32,411 nucleotides of DNA, from NCBI GenBank assembly GCA_001830045.1, contig MIDA01000083.1, forward strand, positions 1-32,411. The letters run 5' to 3'. This document shows, piece after piece, positions 28,736 to 32,411 of the stretch. The notes under the pieces were generated by a model that was not told the DNA's origin, ran no database searches, and saw nothing but the letters and a program-made list of their open reading frames with translations. The stretch comes from Tenericutes bacterium RIFOXYA12_FULL_35_10 (GTDB taxonomy: Bacteria > Bacillota_I > Bacilli_A > Acholeplasmatales > Acholeplasmataceae). Numbering within the stretch: position 1 is the stretch's first letter; every line of letters starts with the position of its first letter. Made by a program: the position numbers and the translations under genes.

Positions 28736-29295
28736 ATGAATCTCATCATTATATTTGGTCCACATGCAGTCGGCAAAATGACGGTAGGACAACACTTATC
28801 AGAGTTAACAGGTATACCTTTATTTCATAATCATGAAAGTATAGAACTTGCGTTAAGACTTCTGCCAAATGATGGAAAATCATGGGGGGGCTTAAGTAAC
28901 GACATACGTGATGTCGTTTTCAAACACGTTTCAAAAGCCCATCAAAAAGGACTTATTTTTACGTTTATGTGGGCGCTTGAGAAATGAGTGACCATGATTA
29001 TATAAAGAAACTAGAAACAATGTTTAAAGAAGAAGGATTTAAGGTTTATTATGTTGAACTTTATGCAGATAAAGACATGAGATTAGAACGCAATAAATCA
29101 GAGAATCGCCTTCAACATAAACCTTCAAAAAGAAATATAAGTGAAAGTGAAGCACGGTTTATCAGATTAGAAGAAAAGTATCGCCTTAATTCATATGAAG
29201 GCGAAATCAAAAAAGAAAACTATATAAAAATGGATAATACACATTTAACTCCTTTAGAGGTTGCATTAATGATCAAGGATACATTTAACCTATGA
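28736..29295 (+). pseudogene. P-loop NTPase/kinase-like protein split by an apparent frameshift (ORFs 28736-28987 and 28984-29295)
   Basis: N part GPHAVGKMTVGQHL...IFTFMWALEK*; C part MSDHDYIKKLETMF...YRLNSYEGE. One extra A in GAGAAATGAG would fuse them as WALEKMSDHDYI. Confidence 0.7.
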
Positions 29296-30011
29296 AAACA
29301 ACCGTATGGAATCCAGTGCGTGGATGTCATAAAATCTCTTCGGGATGTAAGCATTGTTACATCGCATTAGGTGATCAAAAAAAAGGACGTGATTTCAATC
29401 ACATTGAATTGACGTCGCAATACGATAGAATTATTCGAAAGAATAAAAAAGGGGAGTATGTCATTCCCTCAAATACATTGGTCTACACCTGTTTTTCGAG
29501 CGACTTTTTTCTTGAAGAACTCGATAACTATCGTCATGATTGGTGGGCTATGATCAAAGAAAGAAACGATCTTTCGTTTTTATGTTTAACAAAACGTATT
29601 GATCGAATCGATCATGCTTTACCCCTTGATTTTCCGCTTGGTTATGAGCATTTTACAATAGGCGTTTCGGTAGAAAACCAATCCATGGCTGACTATCGAT
29701 TACCCTTCTTATTAAGAAGTTCATTTCAGCATAAACTGATTGTCTGTCAACCTCTTTTAGACTACATCAATCTTGATGCATACTTAGCTGGAATTGAAGC
29801 TGTGGTAGTTGGTGGAGAAGCTGGTAAAGAGGGAAGAGAGATGGATTATGCATGGGTGCTTAAAATCAGAGATACATGCATTAAGCATCGGGTTTCATTT
29901 TCATTTAGGCAAACATCTTCAAACTTCATCAAAGATGGCATTACCCATCATATTCCTTGGAGAATGCTTTCTTCAATGGCTAAATCTTTTGATTTAGATG
30001 TGACATTTTAA
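29292..30011 (+). CDS. DUF5131 (phage Gp37/Gp68-like) family protein
   Basis: TVWNPVRGCHKISSGCKHCYI, FCLTKRIDR-type motif, VVVGGEAGKEGREMDYAWV. Confidence 0.9.
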   Translation: MKTTVWNPVRGCHKISSGCKHCYIALGDQKKGRDFNHIELTSQYDRIIRKNKKGEYVIPSNTLVYTCFSSDFFLEELDNYRHDWWAMIKERNDLSFLCLTKRIDRIDHALPLDFPLGYEHFTIGVSVENQSMADYRLPFLLRSSFQHKLIVCQPLLDYINLDAYLAGIEAVVVGGEAGKEGREMDYAWVLKIRDTCIKHRVSFSFRQTSSNFIKDGITHHIPWRMLSSMAKSFDLDVTF

Positions 30012-30043: not shown

Positions 30044-30754
30044 TTACTGTTCAATTTTAATGGATTCAATGACCATTTCATAAGGTAGGTCTTCATCATG
30101 AATAGCACCACCATACCAACCACCAACCGCTAAATTGATAATTAAGTAATAAGGATGGTCAAAGGGCCATTCACTCACGGTATCACCAGCTGCTTTATCG
30201 ACTCTAAAGTATTCTTTACCATCGATTTGAAATGATAAATAATCTTTGGTCCAATCAAGAGTGTAATCGTGGAATACATCTGATGCATCTAAGACTTTAA
30301 TTTTCGCACCTTTATCGGTGTTGATCTTATGGTTATAGGTATCTGTATGAATTGCACATGTAATAAGACCTGGTCTATTACCTGCAAATTCTACTAAATC
30401 AATTTCACCACAAAGTGGCCATCTCACTTGATTTTGATCAGTGTTTCCCATGAGCCATAATGCGGGCCATGCACCTTTTCCATGTGGCATTTTTGCCCGA
30501 ATGGTGAGTTTTCCATAAAGGAATTCGAGTTTTCCTTTTGTATTAATTCGTGCAGATTGATACTTGCATGTTTGATCATCTTGATGTAGAGTTGCTTTGA
30601 TATGAAGTTTTCCATCTTTGATGTAAGCATGTGTATCATCTTCAACATAACATTGTGATTCATTATTAGCCCATTTGGTTCCGACTTGATAAGTCCATAC
30701 GTTTGGGTCAGGTTTTCCATTTTTTTTGAATGTTTCATGATAAATCGTTTTCAT
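30044..30754 (-). CDS. GH16-family glycoside hydrolase (beta-glucanase/laminarinase-like)
   Basis: WPALWLMG and GEIDLVEFAG (ExDxxE) motifs; no signal peptide visible. Confidence 0.9.
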   Translation of the reverse strand: MKTIYHETFKKNGKPDPNVWTYQVGTKWANNESQCYVEDDTHAYIKDGKLHIKATLHQDDQTCKYQSARINTKGKLEFLYGKLTIRAKMPHGKGAWPALWLMGNTDQNQVRWPLCGEIDLVEFAGNRPGLITCAIHTDTYNHKINTDKGAKIKVLDASDVFHDYTLDWTKDYLSFQIDGKEYFRVDKAAGDTVSEWPFDHPYYLIINLAVGGWYGGAIHDEDLPYEMVIESIKIEQ

Positions 30755-30866
30755 AATATCCTCCGAATTCTTAGATAGTATATCATATGCGTTTTCAAAT
30801 GTGTTAATATAATTAAGGGAGTTGACTAACTATTAAAAGTCAAGTACTTTTATTAGATAAACAGTA

Positions 30867-30899
30867 AAAACCTCCTATAGCAGATAAAATATGGAGGTT
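30867..30899 (-). terminator. Terminator downstream of the IS110 transposase
   Basis: Minus strand AACCTCCATA...TATaGGAGGTTTTTAC. Confidence 0.6.
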
Positions 30900-30952
30900 G
30901 GCTTATATTACAGATGACTTTTTTACTTAACCGCCACAGTTTAAGTAATCAG

Positions 30953-32113
30953 TTATTTGAGTTTAGATGAATCGAAATCTTCTTGATGTGTCTCGAGATG
31001 ATGGATCACTCTCACCAACTTTTTAGCGAGATGAACCATCGCGACTCGATGATGTTTTCCCTCTTGTTTCTTCTTGGTGTAATAGTCATAGAAAACTGGA
31101 TTATTGATCATCACCATCATTGAGATATTGATGAGTGTTGCGCGTAGATATTTGCTACCACGTTTAACGAGTTTGCCAGTGGAAGACATTGTACCTGATT
31201 GTTTGATGGTTGAATCAAGGCCAGCATAGGATAACATTTCAGCGGGATTCGAAAATAGAGTGATGTCTCCATATTCACATAAAATGATGGCTGCTGAAAT
31301 GATGCCGATACCCTTAATCGTTTGAATCTTTGTTGGATACTTATCCATTAAAGAAACGATTTGTTTCTCAGTTTCTAAGATATCTAGGTTGAGCTTTTCA
31401 ACATAAGATATGGAAGTCTTCAACTTAAAGAGTTGGTGATCTTGTGTCACACCAATGGTTGATTTCGCGAGTTCCTTCAGCTTAACAAACTTAGGATAAC
31501 TGAATTTACCCTTAGTTCGTCTCCGAAGTTTATCAAAGTGACTATCGGTCATCTTTGCGATTTTATCGGGTGATGAAAATTCCTTTAAGATAAATAAAGT
31601 GGTTTCAGAATAGCCTTGTTCTCGCATAAAAGGCTTGAGTTCGGGAAAGATAACATCTAAGACCTTAGTCATCATGTTGTAATGTTTAGTGCGCATTGAG
31701 ATGAGCTTAAATCGTAACCTAGTCAGTGATTTTAAGGCACTTATATGATAAGATTGATGATGATAGGCTTTGTAGTCTACAGATCTCATATACGTTGAAA
31801 TCATTTGTGCATCTTTCTTATCCGTCTTTGTTTTTCTGAGTGAATGGGCTTCTCCAAACTTCTTCACGAGAAAAGGATTAATCTCCATGAACGAATAGCC
31901 ATGGAGGGTAAGAAATGACTTAAGGTTTTCACCATAATGACCTGTAGCCTCTAAGCCTATTATCATTTCTTGCTTCAAATAGGGTTTAAAATGTCCTAAT
32001 AGTCCATTAAACCCAGACTGACTGTTCTCAAAAGAGAACTGATAATCAACTGTTTCGGTGGCGATGAAACAGTCGTGTTTGTACTTAGCGATATCGATGC
32101 CGATATAGATCAT
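30953..32113 (-). CDS. IS110-family DEDD transposase/recombinase
   Basis: GIDIAKYKHD, GLEATGHYG, KTDKKDAQMIS, and C-terminal SGTMSSTGKLVKRGSKYLR. Confidence 0.96.
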   Translation of the reverse strand: MIYIGIDIAKYKHDCFIATETVDYQFSFENSQSGFNGLLGHFKPYLKQEMIIGLEATGHYGENLKSFLTLHGYSFMEINPFLVKKFGEAHSLRKTKTDKKDAQMISTYMRSVDYKAYHHQSYHISALKSLTRLRFKLISMRTKHYNMMTKVLDVIFPELKPFMREQGYSETTLFILKEFSSPDKIAKMTDSHFDKLRRRTKGKFSYPKFVKLKELAKSTIGVTQDHQLFKLKTSISYVEKLNLDILETEKQIVSLMDKYPTKIQTIKGIGIISAAIILCEYGDITLFSNPAEMLSYAGLDSTIKQSGTMSSTGKLVKRGSKYLRATLINISMMVMINNPVFYDYYTKKKQEGKHHRVAMVHLAKKLVRVIHHLETHQEDFDSSKLK

Positions 32114-32159
32114 AAGTACACCTCCTAAAAAGTATTATCGTACATGTGGTAAGTCCAGC

Positions 32160-32360
32160 CGAGTCTTTATCTCATAATCATGTAAAAAGCGTCTGGCGCT
32201 AACTAACTATTGCTGATTAAAATAAAGACCGTGGTAAGCGTCAACTCCAAACAGTCTTAGCTGTAATAAGATGATGCAAATCCACAGTACATTATTAGTA
32301 TATTAAATTAGACCGAAAGGAGTAAAGATTTAAATGAGTCTTAAGTACTAACTTAATACA
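32160..32360 (-). ncRNA. Candidate IS110 bridge RNA (core loops 32163-32288; 5' end uncertain)
   Basis: Two stacked stem/internal-loop/hairpin units with four guides matching the element junctions (see findings). Confidence 0.8.
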
Positions 32361-32411
32361 GTTTAAATCTTACATGATTAAAGATGATTCAACTAAAAGA
32401 AATAACAAAAG

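What the first reader, a model, noticed from the sequence alone, without database searches (positions are those of the whole stretch)
32163..32288. Complete bridge RNA readable in the IS110 left end, with four guides that explain this insertion
Minus (transposase-sense) strand of the non-coding left end. Target-binding loop: basal stem ACUGUGG (32282-32288) / CCACGGU (32228-32234); upper hairpin ACAG-cuaaga-CUGU (32251-32264). Its 5' side, UUGcAUCAUCUU (32268-32279), matches left flank TTGaATCATCTT (32381-32392) at 11/12. Its 3' side, GGAGUUGAC (32240-32248), is the exact reverse complement of right flank GTCAACTCC (30818-30826). Donor-binding loop: basal stem GUCUUUAU (32222-32229) / AUAAAGAC (32163-32170); upper hairpin AGCG-ccaga-CGCU (32188-32200). 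Its 5' side, AAUAGUUA (32204-32211), equals the right end AATAGTTA (30827-30834). Its 3' side, UUACAUGAUUA (32175-32185), is the exact reverse complement of the left end TAATCATGTAA (32370-32380). This is the LTG/RTG/LDG/RDG logic established for IS621-type IS110 elements, in the right order and strand. The two donor guides overlap on TA, and the two target matches stop exactly on either side of TA, so the core is TA (or lies within the shared TTA). The two basal stems share 2 nt, so the TBL stem is probably 5-6 bp in practice. The target guides do not pair with the core itself. Bridge RNAs are known as a class; this instance and its guide assignment look new.
Basis: partly seen in the sequence, partly recalled or inferred. 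Interest (0 to 1): 0.93.

Follow-up and report, generated by a model that had tools for sequence, protein, structure and literature searches.

The report
Transposon RNA aimed at gene starts
This mobile DNA element encodes a guide RNA that matches both sides of its own insertion site, and about 60 related elements show that these guides are aimed at the ribosome-binding site and start codon of genes, so the element slips in between the two.

Summary
The finding holds. The IS110 left end encodes a two-loop bridge RNA. A covariance model built on 13 close copies finds it upstream of the transposase in about 70 relatives, and every base pair of both loops shows compensatory changes.
The guides work as guides: across 55-58 insertions the right target guide tracks the right flank (4.25/5 matches after the core; shuffled 2.63±0.12; 0 of 5000 shuffles as high). 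The left guide also tracks its flank, but in a register that slips by 0-3 nt.
(1) The core is CA, not TA: TCA occurs at both ends and once in two orthologous empty sites; the guides do pair with the core. (3) The target's meaning was missed: right flanks are reverse-complemented Shine-Dalgarno sequences, left flanks start codons. Of 81 insertions, 64 lie 3-21 nt before an ORF start (control 11%). Here the hit gene is a GNAT acetyltransferase.
Bridge RNAs are known, and IS900 is a precedent for start-site targeting. New: the guide-level explanation, a natural CA core, repeated CA/CT switching. RNA expression and activity are untested.

The parts
30825..32374 (-). IS110-group element without core (1550 bp; left end 261 nt, right end 128 nt)
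   Evidence: ends set by alignment of 16+ copies, shared core trinucleotide and orthologous empty sites
30953..32113 (-). IS110 recombinase, 386 aa, DEDD + Ser: D7, E55, D98, D101, S306
   Evidence: Pfam PF01548 and PF02371; alignment to IS621 D11/E60/D102/D105/S241
32375..32376 (-). left copy of the core dinucleotide CA (P7 = T at 32377)
   Evidence: empty sites
30823..30824 (-). right copy of the core dinucleotide CA
   Evidence: empty sites
32163..32288 (-). bridge RNA, two-loop part (target loop + donor loop)
   Evidence: structure and covariation
32228..32288 (-). target-binding loop: basal stem 32282-32288 / 32228-32234 (inner 5 pairs 32282-32286/32230-32234), hairpin 32251-32264
32265..32279 (-). 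left target guide UUGCAUCAUCUUAUU; matches left flank TTGAATCATCTT 11/12, shifted ~2 nt from the canonical register
32240..32248 (-). right target guide: GGAGU (32244-32248, pairs right target ACTCC), UG (32242-32243, pairs core CA), AC (32240-32241, handshake guide to donor GT)
32163..32229 (-). donor-binding loop: basal stem 32222-32229 / 32163-32170, hairpin 32188-32200
32201..32211 (-). left donor guide AAUAGUUAGUU (matches right end AATAGTTAGTC with a U.G wobble at the core)
   Evidence: sequence; the donor end is nearly invariant, so this guide has little covariation
32177..32185 (-). right donor guide UUACA (pairs TGTAA), UG (core), AU handshake
30838..30843 (-). -35-like TTGACT at the right end; 17 nt from TAAGAT (32367-32372) in the predicted circle junction (TATAAT in distant relatives)
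   Evidence: sequence; transcription not tested
32297..32326 (-). promoter-like TTTACT-18-TATACT just upstream of the target loop; no more such matches than in shuffles
30818..30822 (-). right target ACTCC = reverse complement of the Shine-Dalgarno GGAGT of the hit gene
32384..32411 (+). start (MIQLKEITK) of the hit gene, a GNAT acetyltransferase by orthology, cut by the contig end

Best explanation
This is an IS110-group insertion sequence. Its left end is transcribed into a bridge RNA that, with the DEDD/Ser recombinase, brings the circular donor (right end-CA-left end) to a target and exchanges strands at a CA core. The target loop is written to read a translation-initiation region: the right guide (GGAG-type) pairs with the strand opposite a Shine-Dalgarno sequence, and the left guide (...CAU...) carries the complement of a start codon. 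The element therefore inserts, in one orientation, between the SD and ATG of a gene; in this window, a GNAT acetyltransferase gene divergent from a GH16 gene. Shown by sequence: guides, structure, core, empty site, target class. Inferred: transcription, RNP formation, strand exchange.
For: Recombinase domains and all five catalytic residues align to IS621. The two-loop RNA is conserved with compensatory changes. RTG-right flank covariation: per-position z 5.8-8.4 at the five positions after the core, ending there; 4.25/5 vs 2.63+-0.12, 0/5000. LTG-left flank: 8.07 vs 7.24+-0.11, 0/1000. RDG-left end: 6.44 vs 5.81+-0.07, 0/1000. Same guide, different insertions, same flank motif: pairs in G052, G021 and zrk7. 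Core trinucleotide mostly identical at both ends and single in two orthologous empty sites. Handshake match to donor P6 57/59 vs target P6 6/59, as described for IS621 (PMC11208158). 64/81 left flanks open an ORF of at least 40 codons from a start codon 3-21 nt away vs 186/1620 controls. Reconstructed empty sites have strong SDs (mean -10.0 kcal/mol, n=43). Hit genes include GAPDH, a class I aminoacyl-tRNA synthetase, D-Ala-D-Ala ligase and ribonucleotide reductase, read from the predicted start codon.
Against: No RNA or activity data. The LTG match is not in one fixed register (offset 0-3 nt); in this window it is 2 nt off. Part of the LTG-CAT agreement may be a by-product of SD targeting, since a start codon always lies nearby. 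MFE folds of the single sequence are only modestly better than shuffles and also show a competing long-range stem. The window's genome has only one copy and the contig ends in the hit gene.
Confidence: 0.9

Rival explanations
1. The recombinase protein itself recognises SD/ATG sequences; the left-end RNA matches flanks because it is a relic or a regulatory leader.
For: All flanks in the subfamily share SD-like and CAT sequences, so part of the match is common to all.
Against: Guides follow lineage-specific flank variants (ACTCC, CCCC, CTCCC, CCTTC, TCTCC, CCTTTC) position by position, and the correlation stops at the guide boundary; RTG bases match the donor at P6; conserved stems flank fast-changing loops.
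Confidence: 0.05
2. Core is TA (or TTA), with the element ending in ...GTTA and starting with TAATCATG.
For: In this window alone TA occurs at both ends next to the guide matches.
Against: TA is absent at the left junction of nearly all other copies; empty sites contain TCA once and lack the predicted C.
Confidence: 0.02
3. The core is the dinucleotide TC (or the exchange covers all of TCA) rather than CA.
For: All three bases are usually shared by both ends (28 TCA/TCA).
Against: End-to-end mismatches fall mostly on the first base (7/60; the few at bases 2-3 are L093 and two elements with doubtful end placement); with CA as core the two bases before it behave as handshake positions P6-P7; CT-core relatives agree with the IS621 register.
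Confidence: 0.08
4. The left guide is not used in target choice; the RTG plus core alone select SDs, and CAT in the left flank follows from gene anatomy.
For: LTG register slips 0-3 nt between insertions, even for one guide (zrk7 pair L035/L036).
Against: Own-flank LTG matches exceed permuted ones (0/1000), with several 11-12/13 matches (L091, L048, L054) beyond CAT; the 12-mer in this window scores 11 against at most 9 elsewhere.
Confidence: 0.2

Closest known systems
IS621 bridge RNA and recombinase (Durrant 2024 PMC11208160; Hiraizumi 2024 PMC11208158)
   Same: DEDD+Ser recombinase, bridge RNA in the left end, loop order, four guides, dinucleotide core, handshake guides, right-left junction promoter motif
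   Different: 386 vs about 330 aa and distant in sequence; targets SD-ATG rather than REP; CA core where IS621 relatives keep T at the second core base (PMC11208158); RTG covers core+5 nt rather than the 4-bp IS621 RTG; LTG register loose
ISEc21 seekRNA, IS110 type (Siddiquee 2024 PMC11187229)
   Same: upstream non-coding RNA with short matches to both target strands
   Different: different target and sequence; that paper gives no SD-ATG target as far as the passages read show
IS900 of Mycobacterium avium paratuberculosis (Doran 1997, read only as cited in PMC8141618)
   Same: IS110-family element reported to target translation-initiation signals
   Different: other lineage; described before guide RNAs were known; its guide was not examined here

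Membership tests
[quoted passage not shown]
   E 2.3e-35; D7, E55, D98, D101 align to IS621 D11, E60, D102, D105
IS110 family recombinase | C-terminal PF02371 domain with catalytic Ser | tested here: met
   E 1.7e-21; S306 aligns to S241
IS110 group (vs IS1111 group) | long left end holding the RNA, upstream of tnp | tested here: met
   left end 261 nt, right end 128 nt; RNA model matches directly upstream of tnp in relatives
Bridge RNA | two internal loops with conserved pairing | tested here: met
Bridge RNA | RTG complementary to right target top strand | tested here: met
Bridge RNA | LTG complementary to left target, fixed register | tested here: inconclusive
   above chance (0/1000) but offset 0-3 nt
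Bridge RNA | LDG/RDG complementary to donor ends | tested here: met
   RDG covariation; LDG matches the conserved right end, little variation to test
Bridge RNA | core dinucleotide shared by target and donor, paired by the guides | tested here: met
IS621-like core | CT core with nearly invariant T | tested here: not met
   CA in this element; among 59 rows of the tree CA 31, CT 28
Bridge RNA | handshake guides matching the partner DNA at P6-P7 | tested here: met
   TBL P6 57/59 donor vs 6/59 target; DBL weaker: P7 51/59, P6 24/59
Bridge RNA | RNA expressed and bound by the recombinase | not testable with these tools
   no expression data
IS900-like start-site targeting | insertion between SD and start codon | tested here: met

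The most novel reading that the evidence does not exclude
A widespread Bacillota/Mycoplasmatota IS110 subfamily carries bridge RNAs whose target loop is a copy of the translation-start signature, making one RNA guide usable at a large set of genes. Its lineages have repeatedly rewritten core (CA/CT), RTG and RDG together in nature, and its left guide tolerates a 1-3 nt slip between start codon and core, a looser pairing rule than IS621's.
Probability: 0.5. Interest if true: 0.78.

Novelty: new variant of a known kind. Interest (0 to 1): 0.62.

Why it matters
It offers a mechanism for an old observation (IS110 elements such as IS900 landing on translation starts): the guide RNA encodes the Shine-Dalgarno. 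It gives a natural data set of roughly 60 insertions for learning bridge-RNA rules (RTG length, handshake bases, core change), including a CA core outside the IS621 rule, which is useful for programming these recombinases. It also suggests how one guide can serve a large number of sites, including essential genes.

Tried and rejected
Rfam: no bridge RNA match in this stretch (only a chance snoRNA, E 0.32). Other copies in the window's own genome: none, so guide-flank tracking was tested in relatives. The continuation of the left flank on another contig: not found. Empty site for the G052 copy in its genus: no ortholog. The promoter scan gives no excess over shuffles. My first guess that the hit gene was an ABC transporter, from nine residues, was wrong; orthologs show GNAT. 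The idea that the inserted element always restores an SD was rejected: only the CCT-core class keeps a moderate one (-6.1 kcal/mol); the window's clade loses it. No held paper joins bridge RNA and Shine-Dalgarno targeting, but most subscription papers and all preprints are missing, so priority is not settled. Caveat on all permutation tests: elements in one clade share guides by descent; flanks are separate insertions, but a few pairs (L063/L066, L076/L109) may not be fully independent.

Full report
What is there. The minus strand of 30825-32374 is one IS110-group element: a 386-aa recombinase with PF01548 and PF02371 and the IS621 catalytic set D, E, D, D, S at D7, E55, D98, D101, S306. The left end is 261 nt and the right end 128 nt. 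Every string in the finding is at its stated place.

RNA structure. Thirteen close copies were aligned. A covariance model finds the RNA directly upstream of the transposase in about 70 relatives with mostly 40-56% identical recombinases. There, all 21 pairs show changes on both sides, 95.8% of cells pair, and no shuffle does as well.

Guides track flanks. For 58 elements I aligned the reverse-complemented right target guide with the sequence after the right-end motif ATAGTTA. The five positions after the core match in 98, 95, 90, 84 and 60% of cases, each far above permutation, and the signal vanishes at the next two positions. Summed: 4.25/5 vs 2.63±0.12, 0/5000. Examples: GGAGTTGA with TCAACTCC (window, G009), GGGGTGA with TCACCCC (zrk7), GAAGGTGA with TCACCTTC (G021), AGAAAGG with CCTTTCT (L049), GGAGATGA with TCATCTCC (L061-L068). 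The left guide also exceeds permutation (8.07 vs 7.24±0.11, 0/1000), but its best register relative to the element end is 0-3 nt, not fixed. By symmetry with the donor loop the expected register is 1; in this window it is 3. The 12-nt left match of the window scores 11, while the same 12-mer scores at most 9 in 80 other left flanks.

Core. In 60 elements with both ends readable, the three bases before the left-end anchor usually equal the three bases after the right-end ATAGTTA[G/A]: TCA/TCA 28, CCT/CCT 16, TCT/TCT 6. Disagreement is mostly at the first base. So the core is CA here and CT in relatives, and the first base is position P7. The bases before the core in the RTG behave as handshake guides (PMC11208158): they match donor P6 in 57/59 and target P6 in 6/59. 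In a FastTree of 59 recombinases the CA/CT label needs 6 changes, at least 4 of them forced by well-supported branches, so core, RTG and RDG have been rewritten together more than once.

Empty site. In two same-genus genomes the GH16 gene next to the element has an uninterrupted neighbour: G017 CAT-CGGTA-TCA-TCTCCC (L131) and G011 CAT-ATGTA-TCA-ACTCC (L132). Joining the window's flanks with TCA once aligns with both. The neighbour gene is a GNAT acetyltransferase, and the window's left flank encodes its first nine residues.

Target meaning. Read on the other strand, right flank + core + left flank is Shine-Dalgarno, spacer, ATG. In 64 of 81 insertions a start codon 3-21 nt from the element opens at least 40 codons, mostly at 7-9 nt; random positions in the same loci give 186/1620. 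Reconstructed empty sites pair with the anti-SD at -10.0 kcal/mol on average; after insertion this falls to -3.4. Hit genes include GAPDH, a class I aminoacyl-tRNA synthetase, D-Ala-D-Ala ligase, DegV and a ribonucleotide reductase, read from the predicted start codon. How essential ones stay expressed is open; only the CCT class keeps a moderate SD.

Known and new. Bridge RNAs, their guides and handshake bases are established (PMC11208160, PMC11208158, PMC11187229). IS900 was reported in 1997 to target translation-initiation signals (Doran, cited in PMC8141618). New here, as far as the held literature shows, are the RNA-level explanation of start-site targeting, a natural CA core with repeated CA/CT switching, and the loose left register. 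Nothing here shows that the RNA is made or works; that step is inference from covariation.

Noticed in passing
about 32313-32328 (-), and the same place in relatives: A motif CTCCTTTC (antisense GAAAGGAG, SD-like on the other strand) is conserved in the left ends of the subfamily, next to an inverted repeat (AAGATTTAAA...TTTAAATCTT here; GTATAATTA...TAATTATAC in L047). Function unknown.
   Followed up: no
32282-32290 with about 32140-32150 (-): The 5' strand of the target-loop stem can also pair with a sequence shortly before the transposase RBS (GUACUGUGG with CCACAUGUAC; GCACC/GGUGC in zrk7 L035; GUACUGUG/CACAGUAC in G021). It competes with the target-loop stem and might be a switch or an outer stem.
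   Followed up: partly
about 32111-32126 (-): The transposase's own start, read on the other strand (CATAAGTACACCTCC), resembles the family's target except for A instead of T at P7; possibly a way to avoid self-insertion.
   Followed up: no
L033:2001-4525 (zrk7 chromosome): Two copies in tandem; the second lacks a left end and its recombinase frame is broken; its right end is followed by TCATGTAA, which looks like a left-end start.
   Followed up: no
L013, L017, L018, L020, L023 and other contig ends of relatives: Many draft contigs of relatives end inside this element, as expected of a repeat that breaks assemblies; the window also ends 35 bases beyond its left core.
   Followed up: no
recombinase residue 108: Residue 108 (Tyr in CA-core elements, Lys/Met in CT-core ones), seven residues after catalytic D101, is the column that best separates the two core classes; shared descent may explain it.
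   Followed up: partly
30044-30754 (-) and 29292-30011 (+): Neighbours: a GH16 glycosyl hydrolase and a DUF5131 protein.
   Followed up: no
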